Of a stretch of 35,512 nucleotides of DNA, positions 25,496 to 32,764 are shown piece by piece; position 1 is the first letter of the stretch, and each line of letters begins with the position of its first letter. The notes under the pieces were generated by a model. It saw nothing but the letters and a program-made list of their open reading frames with translations. It was not told where the DNA came from and searched no databases. Position numbers and translations under genes: made by a program. The stretch spans positions 1 through 35,512 of the forward strand of contig JAVCCZ010000169.1 of the NCBI GenBank assembly GCA_030765265.1, written 5' to 3'. This DNA comes from Candidatus Erginobacter occultus (GTDB lineage: Bacteria > Auribacterota > Erginobacteria > Erginobacterales > Erginobacteraceae).

Positions 25496-25536
25496 AAAAA
25501 AAAGACCGCGGCAGCAATGCCGCGGTCTTTTTTTTT
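25496..25536. terminator. Bidirectional intrinsic terminator
   Basis: A 10-bp GC-rich stem (GACCGCGGCA with its complement, loop GCAA) is flanked by A8 on the left and T9 on the right. It can end both the plus-strand HU transcript and the minus-strand malQ operon. The malQ stop codon lies within the T-run. Confidence 0.93.
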
Positions 25537-27028
25537 ATCTCCCGGTTTCCCTGGCCAGGCGGGAAAGATACCCGGCCAGTTCCCCGGTCAGACATTCTTT
25601 CTTGAACCGCCACTCCCACTGCCCGGTGGCCCGGCCGGGGATGTTCATCCTCCCCCCTCTCCCGACTCCCAGCGGCTCCTGGAAGGGAACGATCACCGTA
25701 TCGGCCTTCGATCGGAAGACGGTTTCAATCATCCCCCAGTGAATCTCCCGGGCGCCGACCCCGAGAAACTTTCGAACCTCTTTCTTCTTCTCCGGTTTCA
25801 GCGACCGGTACCAACCCCGGCAGGTGTCGTTATCGTGGAGCCCAGTGTAATAAGCGCAGTTTTTCGGGACCATCCCCGGGTGGTGGTAGCTCCCCGGAGC
25901 ACCCTCGAGGCCGAACTGCAGTTCCCGGATTCCCGGGATAGAGAATTCCGACATCAGGCGGTCGACCGGCTTTTCAATCTCGGCTTCCAGGGCCTCGGCG
26001 ATGATCGGCAATGACTGCCCCAGTCGTTTTCCCAGCGTCCGGAAGAGAGCGGCCCCCGGGCCCTTCACCCAGACGCCGTTCCGGGATGAGGGCCGCCGGG
26101 GTGGGATATGCCAGCAGGCATAAAAACCCGAGAAGTGATCAACCCGGACAACATCGACCAGGCTCAGCACCCGCCGAAAACGCCGGTACCACCAATCGTA
26201 CCCGTCCCGGCGCATATTCTTCCAATCGTAGAGCGGGTTGCCCCAGACCTGTCCCGTCCGACCGCCCTGGGGCGGCGGTACTCCGGAGAGGGCGGACCGG
26301 CGGCCCTGGGAGTCGACCAGGAATAAAGCGCGATTGGCCCAGGTATCGGCGCTGTCCCGATTGACGAAGAAGGGGAGATCCCCGACCAGGTCCAGACCCC
26401 GCGAGTTGACCTGCCGGCGGAAGCGATTCCACTGCCGGGAAAATAGGTATTGCTGGAAGCGAACCTCCTCGATCCTTTGGGATAGTTCTTGCCCCGCCTC
26501 CTTCAGTGCCTCCCCCTCCCGCCGGACCAGGGGAGCGGGCCATCTGTACCAGGGCCGGTAGGAAAGCTTTTCCTGGAGAGCGACGAAGAGGGCGTAATCC
26601 TCCAGCCAAAAAGAATTTTCTTCCCCGAACAGTTTAAAATCCCTTCTTCCGGACACCGAGGCGCCGGAGAGAAACTGCCGGAAGGCCTTTCGCAGCAGTC
26701 CGCGCTTGAAGCGAATCACCCGGCCGAAGTCAACCCGGTCGACGGGGAAGGAGGGGGGTGAGACCAGGTCGCCGGGGGCGAGCAGGCCTTCCTCGACCAA
26801 AGCTTCGAGATCAATCAGCAACGGGTTACCGGCAAAAGCCGAAGCCGAGGAATAAGGACAGTTGCCCGGGCCAATCGGGCTTAAGGGCAGGATCTGCCAG
26901 AGCTTGATCCCCGAATCGGAGAGAAAATCGGCAAACCGGAGCGAATCCGGGCCGAGGTCGCCGATCCCGAAGGGACCGGGGAGCGAGGTCAGGTGGGCCA
27001 GGATACCACCACGGCGGGGAAAACGCAT
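25535..27028 (-). CDS. malQ: 4-alpha-glucanotransferase (GH77), second tandem copy
   Basis: MalQ moves alpha-1,4-glucan segments between maltooligosaccharides in the cytoplasm. The 497-residue protein carries the GH77 motifs PLSPIGPGNCPYSS, SADTWANRALF, GQVWGNPLYDW, and the catalytic triad Asp297 (VRVDHF), Glu345 (IIAEALE) and Asp399 (LHDND), at nearly the positions known for Thermus amylomaltase. ATG at 27028 has a GGGAGG site 8 bp before it. The frame extends to 27361 but overlaps the other copy. It starts 5 bp after the stop of the first copy and keeps the more standard motifs of the two. It is the last gene before the terminator. Confidence 0.93.
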   Translation of the reverse strand: MRFPRRGGILAHLTSLPGPFGIGDLGPDSLRFADFLSDSGIKLWQILPLSPIGPGNCPYSSASAFAGNPLLIDLEALVEEGLLAPGDLVSPPSFPVDRVDFGRVIRFKRGLLRKAFRQFLSGASVSGRRDFKLFGEENSFWLEDYALFVALQEKLSYRPWYRWPAPLVRREGEALKEAGQELSQRIEEVRFQQYLFSRQWNRFRRQVNSRGLDLVGDLPFFVNRDSADTWANRALFLVDSQGRRSALSGVPPPQGGRTGQVWGNPLYDWKNMRRDGYDWWYRRFRRVLSLVDVVRVDHFSGFYACWHIPPRRPSSRNGVWVKGPGAALFRTLGKRLGQSLPIIAEALEAEIEKPVDRLMSEFSIPGIRELQFGLEGAPGSYHHPGMVPKNCAYYTGLHDNDTCRGWYRSLKPEKKKEVRKFLGVGAREIHWGMIETVFRSKADTVIVPFQEPLGVGRGGRMNIPGRATGQWEWRFKKECLTGELAGYLSRLARETGR

Positions 27029-27033
27029 ATCCG

Positions 27034-28524
27034 TCACCTCCCGGAATCCCGGGTCGCCCGGGCCAGCTGTTCGGCAATCGGCGACGAGATCATCTCGGAA
27101 CGAAAACGCCATTCCCACTGCCCGCTCCCGGCCCCCGGCGTATTCATCCGGGCCTCGCTGCCCAGGCTGAGGACATCCTGGAGTGGGATAATCGCGGTGG
27201 CGGCCGGGGATTGCTGGACGGCCTCGATGAACCACCAGTTGACCTCCCGCCCCTTTCTCGCTCCCAGGCGGGCGCGGACCCGGTCCCGGTCCGCCCTCGG
27301 TCGGGAGGAAAACCAGCCGCGGGCGGTGTCGTCGTCGTGGGTCCCCGGGTAGGCCGCGCAATTTATCGGGTAATTGGCGGGGAGATGGGGGTTGCCGGGC
27401 CGGCCGGAAAAACCGTGCTGGAGGATCCTGATCCCCGGGTAGCCGAGTTCCTCCAGCATCAGTTCGGTCCGGGCCATTATCTTCGGCTCCAACGCCTCGG
27501 CGATGATCGGCAGCGGTCCCCGATTCGCCTCCAGGGACTTAAATAGAGCCGTCCCCGATCCGCTCACCCAGCGCCCCTCGGCCGAGGTCCTGGCTCCCGG
27601 CCGGACGTGCCAGCAGGCGTAAAAGCCGGAGAAATGATCGACCCGGACGATATCGAAGGCGGCCAGCATCTCGGAAAATCTCAGCCGCCACCAGGGAAAA
27701 CCGGCATCCGCCATCGCCGGCCAGTCATAGAGCGGCATATCCCAGATCTGGCTCACCCCGAACCGGCTGGGCGGAACCCCGGAAAGTTCCCGGGGCCGGC
27801 CCCGTTCGTCGAGCAGGAAAAAACCGCGGTGGGCCCAGACATCGACGCTGTCGTGGTTGGCGAAGAAGGAGATGTCCCCGATAATCTCGATCCCCCGGTC
27901 ATTGGCGTACCGGCGCAGCCGCCGCCATTGCCGGGAAAACAGATACTGGTAAAAGCGCAGCTCCGAGATGACGGTGGAAAGTTCCTCTGCGGCCTTCCGG
28001 AGGGCGGCCGGTCTCCGGGAGGCGAACTCCTCCGGCCAGCTCGTCCAGGGCTTTCCCCGGAAGCGATCCTTGAGAGCGGAATAGAGGGCGACATCTTCCA
28101 GCCATTGAGCTTTTTCCCGACAATAATTTTCCAGGTGCCGCCGCTCCCGGCTGCCCGCGTCGGCGAGGAAATTTTGGTAGGCTTTCTTCAGCAGACGGCT
28201 CTTGAACTCGGCTGCCCGCCCGTAATCCGCCCGGCCGGGAGAGAACCCGGGGGAGGAAGAAAGTTCACCGGCCGAAAGCAGCCCGTCCCGGACCAGTTCT
28301 CCGGGGCTGATCAACAGCGGATTTCCGGCCAGGACCGCGGGACTGGAGTAAGGTGAATTGCCGAAACCGAGCGGGGAGAGGGGCAGAACCTGCCACAACC
28401 GCTGGCCGGAAGCGGCCAGGAAATCGACAAAGCGATAGGCTTCCTCCCCCAGGTCGCCGATCCCTCCCGGGGAGGGCAACGAGGTGGGATGAAGCAGGAT
28501 ACCTGAGCGGCGGGGAAAGATCAT
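27034..28524 (-). CDS. malQ: 4-alpha-glucanotransferase (GH77), first tandem copy
   Basis: This 496-residue paralogue aligns over its full length with the next gene and has the GH77 triad Asp296 (VRVDHFSGFYACWH), Glu343 (IIAEALE) and Asp397 (GTHDDDT). Two usually firm motifs differ: WGNPLY is WDMPLY at residues 261-266, and HDND is HDDD. It may therefore have a different donor or acceptor preference or lower activity. The ATG at 28524 has no visible ribosome binding site; instead a CAGAATT heptamer repeat lies directly upstream. It follows the second Deg-type gene by 71 bp on the same strand. Confidence 0.92.
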   Translation of the reverse strand: MIFPRRSGILLHPTSLPSPGGIGDLGEEAYRFVDFLAASGQRLWQVLPLSPLGFGNSPYSSPAVLAGNPLLISPGELVRDGLLSAGELSSSPGFSPGRADYGRAAEFKSRLLKKAYQNFLADAGSRERRHLENYCREKAQWLEDVALYSALKDRFRGKPWTSWPEEFASRRPAALRKAAEELSTVISELRFYQYLFSRQWRRLRRYANDRGIEIIGDISFFANHDSVDVWAHRGFFLLDERGRPRELSGVPPSRFGVSQIWDMPLYDWPAMADAGFPWWRLRFSEMLAAFDIVRVDHFSGFYACWHVRPGARTSAEGRWVSGSGTALFKSLEANRGPLPIIAEALEPKIMARTELMLEELGYPGIRILQHGFSGRPGNPHLPANYPINCAAYPGTHDDDTARGWFSSRPRADRDRVRARLGARKGREVNWWFIEAVQQSPAATAIIPLQDVLSLGSEARMNTPGAGSGQWEWRFRSEMISSPIAEQLARATRDSGR

Positions 28525-28595: not shown

Positions 28596-30074
28596 CTACT
28601 CCAGCAGGCGCAGCCTGGGGATTTCGTACTGGTCGGCGATCCGGCGGTCGGCCTCCTCCAGGTCGGCGGCCCGGAAGACGATTTCCCGATCGAACTCCTC
28701 GAAGCGGAAACGGTGGAACTCCCCTTCGGGGAAACGGAGCGCCTCGGCCACATCCTCGATTCCCCCGATCGGCCGGCCGTTGACCTCGGCCAGGACCAGG
28801 TCCTCCAGACCCTGGTAACCGAGATTGACCTCGTCGGGAAGAACCCGGTTGAGCAGTACGACTCTCTCTCTTCCCGGCCCGATCCGGCGGGAGTTATAAT
28901 AGTTATGGTAGAGCAGCTTCTTGTTCCCCCGCCGCACCCACTGGTTTCCCCATTCCCGGAGATAATCCCGGGTCAGTTCCTGGATTATCACCCCCCCGAC
29001 AATCAGGTATTTGGTCGGTTCCCGACCGCTGTAGGGCGGGATCAGGTAATCGGAGAGGAGCCAGCGGCGGAGAACCATCTCCAGTTTTACCGTCTCTCCG
29101 TCCCGGACCAACTCCAATTTCACACGGTCGCCGGGAGAGTAAAACCGGGTGAAGAGATCCCGGTAATCGAGCCGCCCCCAGCGGGTATCCTCGTAATACC
29201 CCTCCAGGTCGAGGGGCCGGCCGTCAACCGCCAGGAGGACATCACCCGCTTCCAGCACCCCGTCGGCCGAGGACCGGGGATAGACGGAAGTGATATAGAT
29301 CCCGCCACCGTTATCCGGAAGTTGGAGGAACTTTCGGAAGGCGGGGTCGCGGGTGGGGACGGAGAAAAAACCCGGGTCGGGGAATCCGGCGTAGCCCTCC
29401 GGCTTGATCTCCGGTAAAAATCGCCGGATAATCGCCGCCGGGATGATAACGGCATACTGGCGCTGGCCGTCATAGGTCATCGTCAACCCGACCAGCTCCC
29501 CCCCGGCGACCACCGGCTCGCTCCAGCCCCCTCCCCGGTCCTCGAAGTTGACCGCCGCCCCGAAAGTCAGGAAACGATCGGGACTGAGGTAATACTCCTC
29601 CACCGAGACTTTGACGATCGCGCCCGGAATGGCCCGGATCCGGTCCGGTTCGGCGAAGACCAGGAACTGGACCGGCTGATCGAGTTCCACCGTCTCCGCC
29701 AGCTCGACCGGGGAGAGATCATTGAAGAATGATTCATCTTCAACGGATACCGTCGCCAGGTCGACGTCGTAATCGATCACCTCGACCCGGCCCTGATAAT
29801 AGCGTTTCTCCCCCCGTTTCTCGACCTTGATCATCGTGGCGTCCTTGACGATATCCGCGGTGGTGAGGATCCGCCCGGGGGAGATCACGCAGCCGTAGCC
29901 GGCCCGGGCGCTCTCCCGCGTCCGCTTCCAGGGACTGGAGTGATCGGTCTCCTGGCTGGTGACGTGGAGCCGGACCGGGACCGGTTCCGGCTCCGCCGGG
30001 GCGGAAAAGAGCAGCCCGGACCAGCCGAATAGGCAGATAGTCAGTTTCACCGCCAGGTTCATCAGTTCATTCAT
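28596..30074 (-). CDS. Deg-type protease homologue, catalytically inactive
   Basis: The 492-residue protein aligns with its upstream neighbour throughout: a signal-like N-terminus (AVKLTICLFGWSGLLFSA), a trypsin-like domain and two PDZ domains. The catalytic His is replaced by Asp (TTADIV, Asp74). Asp105 (DVDLATV) is kept. The serine motif GNSGGP is altered to GGWSEP, which would spoil the oxyanion hole even if Ser185 aligns. It should therefore not cut peptides and may serve as a binding or regulatory partner. It overlaps the active gene by 8 bp. ATG at 30074 has GGGAG only 1 bp away; ATG at 30062 is an alternative start. Confidence 0.85.
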   Translation of the reverse strand: MNELMNLAVKLTICLFGWSGLLFSAPAEPEPVPVRLHVTSQETDHSSPWKRTRESARAGYGCVISPGRILTTADIVKDATMIKVEKRGEKRYYQGRVEVIDYDVDLATVSVEDESFFNDLSPVELAETVELDQPVQFLVFAEPDRIRAIPGAIVKVSVEEYYLSPDRFLTFGAAVNFEDRGGGWSEPVVAGGELVGLTMTYDGQRQYAVIIPAAIIRRFLPEIKPEGYAGFPDPGFFSVPTRDPAFRKFLQLPDNGGGIYITSVYPRSSADGVLEAGDVLLAVDGRPLDLEGYYEDTRWGRLDYRDLFTRFYSPGDRVKLELVRDGETVKLEMVLRRWLLSDYLIPPYSGREPTKYLIVGGVIIQELTRDYLREWGNQWVRRGNKKLLYHNYYNSRRIGPGRERVVLLNRVLPDEVNLGYQGLEDLVLAEVNGRPIGGIEDVAEALRFPEGEFHRFRFEEFDREIVFRAADLEEADRRIADQYEIPRLRLLE

Positions 30075-31611
30075 TCTCCCTTGATCCCATCAAATTGCTT
30101 TCGGGGAGTTCGGGCACAGGTTTGGCCGGGCCGGCCAGATGACGATCGGCGGGGATCCGGTATCGCTGAAGAATTGTCGCATGCTCCGCTTCCGCCGCCG
30201 CCGCGTCGAGAACGACCGGGGGACCCGCCCCGTCAAACTCGATCAGGTGATAATCTCCCGCCGGCCGGGCGAAGGCTTCTTCCAGGTCGGCCAGGCCTCT
30301 GATCTTGACGCCGTTGACCCGCTCGACCACCTCCAGGGAGAGATCGGAATAGTACTGGTTGACCGGAGCGGGAAGAACCCGGGAGAGAACGACGATCTCC
30401 GGACGCTCGAGGTAGATCCGGTCCTGGTTGTAATAGCTGAAGTAATAGGGTAGCCGGGGATCGGCGCGACTGGACCAGTCGTCGCTCCAGGCCTGGAGAT
30501 ACTCCCGGGAGAGCGGCTGAAAGAGGAGACCGCCGAATATCAGGTATTCCGGCCGGGTTTCGTACTCGTTCCCGGTCCGCAGGGTCTCCCGCCCCGACCG
30601 GAGGAGGAGGGGAATAATCATCTCCTCCCCGTCCCGGACCAGGTCCAAGGCTACCTCTTCCCCGACCTGCTTCCGTTCCACCACCTCTTCGAGAAAGTAG
30701 CTCTCGCCGTCAATCAGAATCGTCCCGTCGTTGAGAATCGGATTGCCGTCGATCGCCAGGAGGATATCCCCGGGGAGGACGAACCCTTTCGCCGAATGCC
30801 CCTCGAGCACGGCCGCGGCCGCCACCCCGGTCTTCCCCTCCGGCAATCCCAGGTACTCCCGGTAGGCGGGGTTGAGGAGGTTGGCGGTAATGATTCCCAG
30901 ATCGGGATAGCCGTCGTAGCGGCCGTCGGTGAGATCCTCGAGGAAGTGTCGGATCACGGTGATCGGAATCACGTGGCCGACATTCTCCGAGGGCTGGACA
31001 CCCTGGAAGACGATCCCGACGATCTTTCCCTCCCGGAGGGCCGGGCCGCCGGAGTTGCCCGGGTTGACGGCGGCGTCGATCTGGACGACCAGATGATAAT
31101 CCCGGGCCGAATGATTGTAGAGGGCGTAATCGATCCGGGAGACCACCCCCCGGGTGACCGTGATCCTCCGCCCTCCGGCCGGGAAACCGTAAGCCTCGAC
31201 CATCGATCCGAGCGGGGGGATCTCCCGGTGAAAGTCAAGGTGGGTGGTATCGGCGAAGAATTCGGGGTCGAGGACCTCGAGCAGGGCCAGGTCGCAATCG
31301 TGGCCGATATGGGAGACCACCGCCCCGTAGGGTGTCCCGCTGTCCTCCTTCTCGACCTCCAGGTATCGGGAGTCGCTGACCACGTGGGCGCTGGTCAGGA
31401 TCCGGTTGCCGGGGATGATCACCCCGGAACCCCGCCCGAGGGAAAAATCCTTCTCCAGCCAGGGGGAAGCGTAATCCGGTCTCTGGCTGACGTTCTTGAT
31501 CTTGACGATCGCCGAACGGATCCGGGGGATCTCGTCTTCCTCGAGCGCGAAGACAGACAAGAGCGGAAGGAGAACCGAACCGCAAACCAGCGAAACCAAA
31601 AGCTTTCTCAT
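30067..31611 (-). CDS. Deg9-like serine protease with two PDZ domains
   Basis: The 514-residue exported protein has a signal peptide (residues 1-22), a trypsin-like domain with the triad His76 (TSAHVV), Asp107 (DCDLALLEV) and Ser187 (NPGNSGGPA), a PDZ domain (about 255-350; FVLPGDILLAIDGNPI) and a second C-terminal PDZ (about 360-480). The signature FGGLLFQPLSREYLQAW and the later VVLSRVLPAPVN and VERVNGVKI are those of the plant Deg9/Deg10 architecture rather than DegP/DegS. It probably cleaves misfolded proteins in the periplasm. It begins 1 bp after the stop of the DUF362 gene. Confidence 0.9.
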   Translation of the reverse strand: MRKLLVSLVCGSVLLPLLSVFALEEDEIPRIRSAIVKIKNVSQRPDYASPWLEKDFSLGRGSGVIIPGNRILTSAHVVSDSRYLEVEKEDSGTPYGAVVSHIGHDCDLALLEVLDPEFFADTTHLDFHREIPPLGSMVEAYGFPAGGRRITVTRGVVSRIDYALYNHSARDYHLVVQIDAAVNPGNSGGPALREGKIVGIVFQGVQPSENVGHVIPITVIRHFLEDLTDGRYDGYPDLGIITANLLNPAYREYLGLPEGKTGVAAAAVLEGHSAKGFVLPGDILLAIDGNPILNDGTILIDGESYFLEEVVERKQVGEEVALDLVRDGEEMIIPLLLRSGRETLRTGNEYETRPEYLIFGGLLFQPLSREYLQAWSDDWSSRADPRLPYYFSYYNQDRIYLERPEIVVLSRVLPAPVNQYYSDLSLEVVERVNGVKIRGLADLEEAFARPAGDYHLIEFDGAGPPVVLDAAAAEAEHATILQRYRIPADRHLAGPAKPVPELPESNLMGSRENE

Positions 31612-31612
31612 C

Positions 31613-32764
31613 TCATCCCACCTTCACCAGGCGGTAGTTTCTGGTACCGAGACCGGCCAGTTCGGCAGCGGCCAGAAAAGGTTCCAGGTCGACCCCGAAG
31701 AGGGTCTTGAACTTGTCCGGGAGACGGGGGAGGCAGCAGTACTGCCCGGCGATCTTTTCCGTCACCCGCTTATTCGAGACTCGGACCCGCTTCGCCACCG
31801 CGGTCGCGCCCGGGATCAGGGGGGCCTTCCGGATCAGGTCGATCGACGCCTGGTCAACGGCCAGGATATCCCGGGAGGCGAGGATCCCCTGGTCGGGGAC
31901 GAAGGGGGGTTCGGTCCAGTCGCAGCAGTCGCAATCGGGGGTGATGTCGAGGAGGAAATTCAGGTAAAGCGCCCGGTCCATTTTCCCCTCCAGAACCGCC
32001 CGGGCATAGGCGGCCGACTTTTCGGCCATCCGCTCCGATTCCCCCTTCCAGATCACCGGGATCGCCCCTTCGGGGCAGACGGCGATACATTCCCCGCAGC
32101 CGATACATTTTTCCCGGTCGATGACGGCCTTCCCCGCCCGGTCGAAGACGATCGCCGAAACCGGGCAGTAACGGATACAGGTTCCGCAGCCGACGCATTT
32201 TCCCTTTTTTACCACCGGTTTCAGATCGCTGTGCATCACCTGTTTCCCGGCCGGGGAGGCCAAGCCCATACTGATGTTCTTGACCGCCCCGCCGTAGCCG
32301 AAGGCCACGTGGCCGGTGGCGTGAGTGATCACCAGAAGGCTGTCGGCGGACCGGACCGCCTCCGCCACCCGGACCGGACGGCCGCCGATCGCCAGGCCCT
32401 TCTCCTCGAGAAAACGATCGGCGATCACGATCGGGGCCCCAATGTTTTCTTCCGTAAAACCGTGGCGGCGGGCGGTCTGGAGATGGGCGGCGGTCCGGTG
32501 GCGGCCGCCCCGGTAAAGGGTGTTGGAATCGGTAAGGAACGGCCGCGCCCCCAGTTCCCGCAGCTTTGCCACCAAACGGCGGGCGAAGGCGGGTTTCAGG
32601 TATCCGGTATTGCCCTCCTCCCCGAAGTGGACCTTGACCGCCACCCGGTCGCCGGGACGGAAGATCTCCCCTCCCCCGGCCCGGTCGAAGAGGTCGGAGA
32701 GTTTATCCAAACCCGACCGCCCGGCCCGGGCGGAGGAGTCGGCGTAATATATTTTGGCGGTCAT
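31613..32764 (-). CDS. DUF362 protein with two [4Fe-4S] clusters
   Basis: The 383-residue protein has an N-terminal DUF362 part (VAVKVHFGEEGNTGYLKP, THATGHVAFGYGGAVKNISM) and a central 2[4Fe-4S] ferredoxin domain: CVGCGTCIRYCP (Cys190-200) and CIGCGECIAVCP (Cys220-230). Further cysteines occur in DCDCCDW and QYCCLP. Members are called DUF362 or iron-sulfur cluster-binding proteins and have no assigned reaction; electron transfer is likely. No signal peptide is seen. It lies 104 bp after ligA and directly before the Deg-type pair, all on one strand. Confidence 0.9.
   Translation of the reverse strand: MTAKIYYADSSARAGRSGLDKLSDLFDRAGGGEIFRPGDRVAVKVHFGEEGNTGYLKPAFARRLVAKLRELGARPFLTDSNTLYRGGRHRTAAHLQTARRHGFTEENIGAPIVIADRFLEEKGLAIGGRPVRVAEAVRSADSLLVITHATGHVAFGYGGAVKNISMGLASPAGKQVMHSDLKPVVKKGKCVGCGTCIRYCPVSAIVFDRAGKAVIDREKCIGCGECIAVCPEGAIPVIWKGESERMAEKSAAYARAVLEGKMDRALYLNFLLDITPDCDCCDWTEPPFVPDQGILASRDILAVDQASIDLIRKAPLIPGATAVAKRVRVSNKRVTEKIAGQYCCLPRLPDKFKTLFGVDLEPFLAAAELAGLGTRNYRLVKVG

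What the first reader, a model, noticed from the sequence alone, without database searches (positions are those of the whole stretch)
28596..31611. Adjacent active and dead Deg9-like proteases
Two paralogous trypsin-PDZ-PDZ proteins overlap by 8 bp. The first keeps His76, Asp107 and Ser187; the second has Asp for His and GGWSEP for GNSGGP, while its PDZ domains are well conserved. Such a pair could form a mixed oligomer in which the dead subunit binds substrates or regulates the active one, as pseudoproteases do elsewhere. I do not know of a described bacterial Deg9-type pair of this kind.
Basis: partly seen in the sequence, partly recalled or inferred. Interest (0 to 1): 0.62.

Follow-up and report, generated by a model that had tools for sequence, protein, structure and literature searches.

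The report
Ancient protease and dead-partner gene pair
The window holds a working protease gene directly followed by a related gene whose protease centre has been lost, and the same pair turns out to be kept, always with the second copy dead, across very distant bacteria including the gut microbe Akkermansia muciniphila, which points to a partner protein with a real job and not to a broken gene.

Summary
Gene A (30067-31611, minus) is an intact Deg2/Deg9-type HtrA protease. Gene D (28596-30074, minus) overlaps it by 8 bp, is 32% identical and has lost the catalytic centre. The window comes from Candidatus Auribacterota. I classified 257 copies. All 103 A copies of pairs keep His-Asp-Ser, and so do 37 of 38 unpaired copies (one is His-Glu-Ser). 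None of 116 D copies does, and none keeps the His. D forms one clade even when only PDZ domains are used, so there was one old loss, not repeated decay. Close relatives of D show dN/dS of about 0.09 in the dead domain. D folds confidently as a complete Deg9 (TM 0.87-0.91). In 145 near-complete Verrucomicrobiota genomes, 31 have the pair, 21 have active copies only and none has D alone. A. muciniphila BAA-835 carries the pair. In ten loci the genes have separated, yet 9 of those 10 genomes keep an A elsewhere. Best reading: D is a dedicated non-catalytic partner of A, probably a subunit or adaptor. Physical interaction is untested. The concept has precedents (MamE/MamO, plant Deg7). I found no description of this family.

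The parts
30067..31611 (-). Gene A: active Deg2/Deg9-type HtrA serine protease (signal-like N-terminus, Trypsin_2 domain c. 36-235, PDZ1 c. 240-337, PDZ_3 c. 348-490); His76, Asp107, Ser187
28596..30074 (-). Gene D: pseudoprotease partner of the same architecture; Asp74 for His, triad serine loop replaced by GGGWSEP
30067..30074 (-). 8-bp ORF overlap ATGAATGA joining the stop of A to the start of D, behind a Shine-Dalgarno-like AAGGGAG; suggests translational coupling (inference)
29853..29855 (-). D codon 74 (Asp) at the position of the catalytic His
   Evidence: computed coordinates; alignment
29517..29537 (-). D codons 180-186 (RGGGWSE) replacing the GNSGG loop that carries the catalytic Ser
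   Evidence: computed coordinates

Best explanation
A and D are a co-inherited protease-pseudoprotease pair exported to the periplasm. A does the cutting. D keeps the full protease-PDZ-PDZ fold without catalysis and most likely acts as A's dedicated non-catalytic partner, either as a subunit in a mixed HtrA oligomer or as a PDZ-bearing adaptor that presents substrates to A or sets its activity. Shown: the pair, the single origin and lasting loss of D's triad, selection on D, its predicted intact fold, linkage to A, and that D is not found without A in near-complete genomes. Inferred: export (signal-like N-termini), coupled translation, physical contact and regulation.
For: Triad: HDS in 103/103 paired A, 37/38 singletons (one HES), 0/116 D, none of which keeps the His or a G[NS]SGG motif. 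The replacement is patterned: Asp to Asn in 97/116 and His to Glu/Asp in 83/116, and an aromatic-x-x-P loop in 71/82. D is one clade in the whole-protein (support 100), PDZ-only (99) and protease-only (99) trees, and A of pairs is separate from singletons in the whole-protein tree. Purifying selection on D's dead domain: median dN/dS 0.089, maximum 0.227, over 42 close comparisons. Linkage: 70 of 82 D loci have A upstream on the same strand, mostly -4 to +60 bp, while other neighbours are not widely shared. Of 10 genomes with unlinked D, 9 carry an intact A elsewhere. In 145 Verrucomicrobiota genomes at least 90% complete: 31 with the pair, 21 with active copies only, 0 with D alone. D model: pLDDT 91, TM 0.87/0.91 to Deg9. 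Paired A differs from singletons at R149, D161, D171, H173, E309, E312 and R313; counting back from Ser, 149-161 matches the strand used for trimer contacts in Deg5 (PMC3640471). Precedent: MamO is needed non-catalytically for MamE proteolysis (PMC4794232).
Against: No interaction, expression or activity data. Multimer modelling was not possible. Co-inheritance alone gives the strong A-D distance correlation (0.96), so that is not evidence of contact. D differs from A at the strand used for trimer contacts in HtrA, and in some lineages D looks like a lipoprotein (Akkermansia), so the two might sit apart. In MamE/MamO itself no physical interaction was detected.
Confidence: 0.62

Rival explanations
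1. D works on its own in the same compartment, for example as a PDZ chaperone or peptide-binding protein, and is only co-expressed with A.
For: D has strongly conserved features of its own: D101, E366, G419, Y420 and the QELT segment. The genes have separated in some Verrucomicrobiota. HtrA proteins have chaperone activity apart from proteolysis (PMC4877387).
Against: D was never found in a near-complete genome without A, while A-type proteins occur without D; adjacency is held while other neighbours change.
Confidence: 0.22
2. D has taken a new active-site function, such as metal binding as in MamO, using the often acidic residue at the His position and the invariant Asp101 near it.
For: Acidic residue at the His position in 83 of 116 D; D101 invariant in the weighted set of 82; MamO binds metal (PMC4794232).
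Against: The position varies (Gln, Asn, Ala, Ser, Thr in other D copies), and Akkermansia D has Asn/Asn/Ala; no set of metal ligands is fixed across the clade.
Confidence: 0.1
3. D is a decaying duplicate, a pseudogene in progress.
For: Catalytic residues lost; D's protease domain evolves faster than A's (median dN/dS 0.089 against 0.029).
Against: Full-length open frames over several phyla, one old origin, dN/dS far below 1, confident complete fold.
Confidence: 0.02

Closest known systems
Plant Deg2 and Deg9 (PDB 4fln, 5il9; PDZ_3 family PF17815)
   Same: Same domain order and fold for both proteins; A keeps the triad.
   Different: The plant proteins are single active enzymes; D lacks the triad; this pair is bacterial and probably exported.
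MamE/MamO of magnetotactic bacteria (PMC4794232)
   Same: An active HtrA and a pseudo-HtrA in one gene cluster; the dead one is needed non-catalytically for proteolysis by the active one.
   Different: MamO carries a TauE transporter domain, binds metal and belongs to the magnetosome island; its loss of activity is a separate event within a narrow group.
Plant Deg7 (PMC3473262); yeast Nma111 by recollection
   Same: Active protease-PDZ-PDZ followed by inactive protease-PDZ-PDZ, in the same order.
   Different: Fused in one eukaryotic polypeptide; whether its halves are related to A and D was not tested.
Plant Deg5/Deg8
   Same: Two HtrA paralogues that form heterohexamers (PMC9319218).
   Different: Both are catalytically competent.

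Membership tests
Deg2/Deg9-type HtrA protease | Trypsin-like domain followed by PDZ and PDZ_3 domains | tested here: met
   A and D: Pfam (D's Trypsin_2 match is below cut-off), phmmer, Foldseek best TM 0.82-0.92 to Deg2/Deg9
Deg2/Deg9-type HtrA protease | His-Asp-Ser catalytic triad | tested here: not met
   Met in A (H76, D107, S187); not met in D or in any of 116 D copies. D is therefore a homologue with this fold, not a member as an enzyme.
Deg2/Deg9-type HtrA protease | Trimer/hexamer assembly | not testable with these tools
   Only monomers could be modelled
MamE/MamO-type protease-pseudoprotease pair | Linked active and catalytically dead HtrA genes | tested here: met
MamE/MamO-type protease-pseudoprotease pair | TauE transporter domain on the dead protein | tested here: not met
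   D ends after PDZ_3; no other Pfam domain
MamE/MamO-type protease-pseudoprotease pair | Dead partner needed for proteolysis by the active one | not testable with these tools
   Needs genetics
Deg7-type fused HtrA | Active and inactive halves in one polypeptide | tested here: not met
   Two separate ORFs with an 8-bp overlap; pairs elsewhere are separate ORFs too

The most novel reading that the evidence does not exclude
An obligate two-gene HtrA machine, with an active and a permanently dead subunit assembling together, arose once by duplication and has been kept since early in the Verrucomicrobiota-Auribacterota lineages. It would be the first widespread bacterial HtrA hetero-complex built on a pseudoprotease, and it would be open to test in A. 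muciniphila.
Probability: 0.4. Interest if true: 0.78.

Novelty: new variant of a known kind. Interest (0 to 1): 0.6.

Why it matters
Bacterial HtrA proteases are usually treated as homo-oligomers. A dead paralogue fixed once and kept beside its active partner across phyla, including a closed A. muciniphila genome, makes the role of a pseudoprotease in envelope protein quality control directly testable. It also means that naming members of the D family 'serine protease' would be wrong.

Tried and rejected
Pseudogene decay was rejected by open frames, dN/dS and the single clade. Convergent decay drawing dead copies together in the tree was tested with a PDZ-only tree; D is still one group, though several D branches are long and only quick trees were run. 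An operon-wide function was considered: ligA-DUF362-A-D is shared only with close relatives, and neighbours elsewhere differ, so neighbours say little. A first genome-contig scan with the single protein found nothing; the alignment worked. dN/dS over distant pairs is distorted by saturation and was not used. The A-D distance correlation is uninformative for contact. The Deg2 structure paper (internal PDZ ligand) and one A. muciniphila paper looked up by DOI are not held. Ten literature searches found no description of this pair; the library lacks most subscription journals.

Full report
The two genes are as described. A (30067-31611, minus) and D (28596-30074, minus) overlap by 8 bp, and D's start lies behind an AAGGGAG in the end of A. 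Both have Deg2/Deg9 architecture. A has H76, D107 and S187. D has Asp for His, keeps an Asp and has lost the serine loop.

Where it comes from. Contigs of two phylum relatives match, by length, records titled Candidatus Auribacterota (G010:C17, 50,720 bp = JAGLFH010000024; G025:C98, 10,283 bp = JAFGJP010000103). In the 44 genomes of the phylum, nine carry A then D on one contig. A tenth (G031) has D at one contig end and an A fragment with intact His and Asp at another. G016 has a lone active copy that groups with singletons.

Wider spread. An alignment of D found 203 relatives in genome contigs. The best 80 were read: mostly Verrucomicrobiota, with a few Kiritimatiellota and Lentisphaerota and single MAGs labelled Acidobacteria and Planctomycetota (MAG labels may be wrong). 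A second, less biased sample of 145 Verrucomicrobiota genomes at least 90% complete gave 31 with the pair, 21 with active copies only and none with D alone. One of them has a chromosome of 2,664,102 bp, the published length of A. muciniphila ATCC BAA-835 (PMC3048395), which also tells that the sampled phylum is Verrucomicrobiota. A broad sample of 384 genomes gave five pairs outside Auribacterota, all with active A and dead D.

The active site. Over all classified copies, 103 of 103 paired A and 37 of 38 singletons have His-Asp-Ser (the other has His-Glu-Ser); 0 of 116 D do and none keeps the His. The sets hold some near-copies; at 70% identity they are about 53, 35 and 69 clusters. The changes are patterned: His mostly to Glu or Asp, Asp mostly to Asn, and the serine loop mostly to an aromatic-x-x-P loop. 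The exact residue at the Ser position depends on the alignment because the loop length differs.

History and selection. D is one group in trees of the whole protein, the PDZ part and the protease part; A of pairs is separate from singletons in the whole-protein tree except for the lone G016 copy. One duplication and one loss of the triad, followed by joint inheritance, is the simplest account. Close relatives give median dN/dS of 0.029 (A protease), 0.037 (A PDZ), 0.089 (D protease) and 0.056 (D PDZ). D's protease domain is thus relaxed compared with A's but far from neutral.

Coupling. In 70 of 82 D loci A lies upstream on the same strand, usually overlapping or within 60 bp; one is 2.5 kb away (L043), and one negative value (L068) reflects an ORF start set too early. 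No other neighbour is shared widely. In ten loci D stands alone with its upstream DNA present (L064, L074, L083, L089, L092, L095, L097, L100, L101, L111). Nine of these genomes have an intact A elsewhere; only the L092 genome gave none. L059 starts 249 bp before D, so its A may be cut off.

Structure. D is modelled with pLDDT 91 and pTM 0.86, matching Deg9 and Deg2 over its whole length (TM up to 0.87/0.91). A gives 88 and 0.85. Residues shared by A and D include Pro-Trp at the start of the protease domain (A 50-51, D 48-49), also present in Deg2 and Deg9. Paired A differs from singletons at a few places in the protease domain and in PDZ1. The mapping of 149-161 to the Deg5 trimer strand (PMC3640471) rests on counting back from the serine and is only suggestive.

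Mechanism. The best reading is a non-catalytic partner of A. Shown are joint inheritance, selection, predicted fold and absence of D without A in near-complete genomes; inferred are contact and regulation. MamO shows that a dead HtrA can be required for an active one's work, and Deg7 shows the same order of halves in one chain. Both make the idea plausible and limit its novelty. This family is a new variant, with a fixed pair that spans phyla, as far as the held literature shows.

Limits.

Noticed in passing
window 25535-28524 (-): Two tandem GH77 4-alpha-glucanotransferase (malQ) paralogues, 50% identical, follow the pair; the second ORF's true start is probably well inside the listed one.
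   Followed up: partly
window 31613-32764 (-): A DUF362 protein with two 4Fe-4S motifs ends 1 bp before gene A; ligA-DUF362-A-D order is shared only with close relatives (L026, and L024 in part).
   Followed up: partly
L242:2263-3843 and L087:7833-9392: D of A. muciniphila and of Luteolibacter marinus begins with a lipobox-like signal (LGGC, LPGC), so in some lineages D may be a lipoprotein.
   Followed up: partly
L185:4791-6260: A single-copy relative has His-Glu-Ser instead of His-Asp-Ser, the only unpaired copy with an altered triad.
   Followed up: no
L240 and L252 (G474), L033 and L198 (G031): In two genomes the pair is split over two contig ends, probably assembly breaks.
   Followed up: partly
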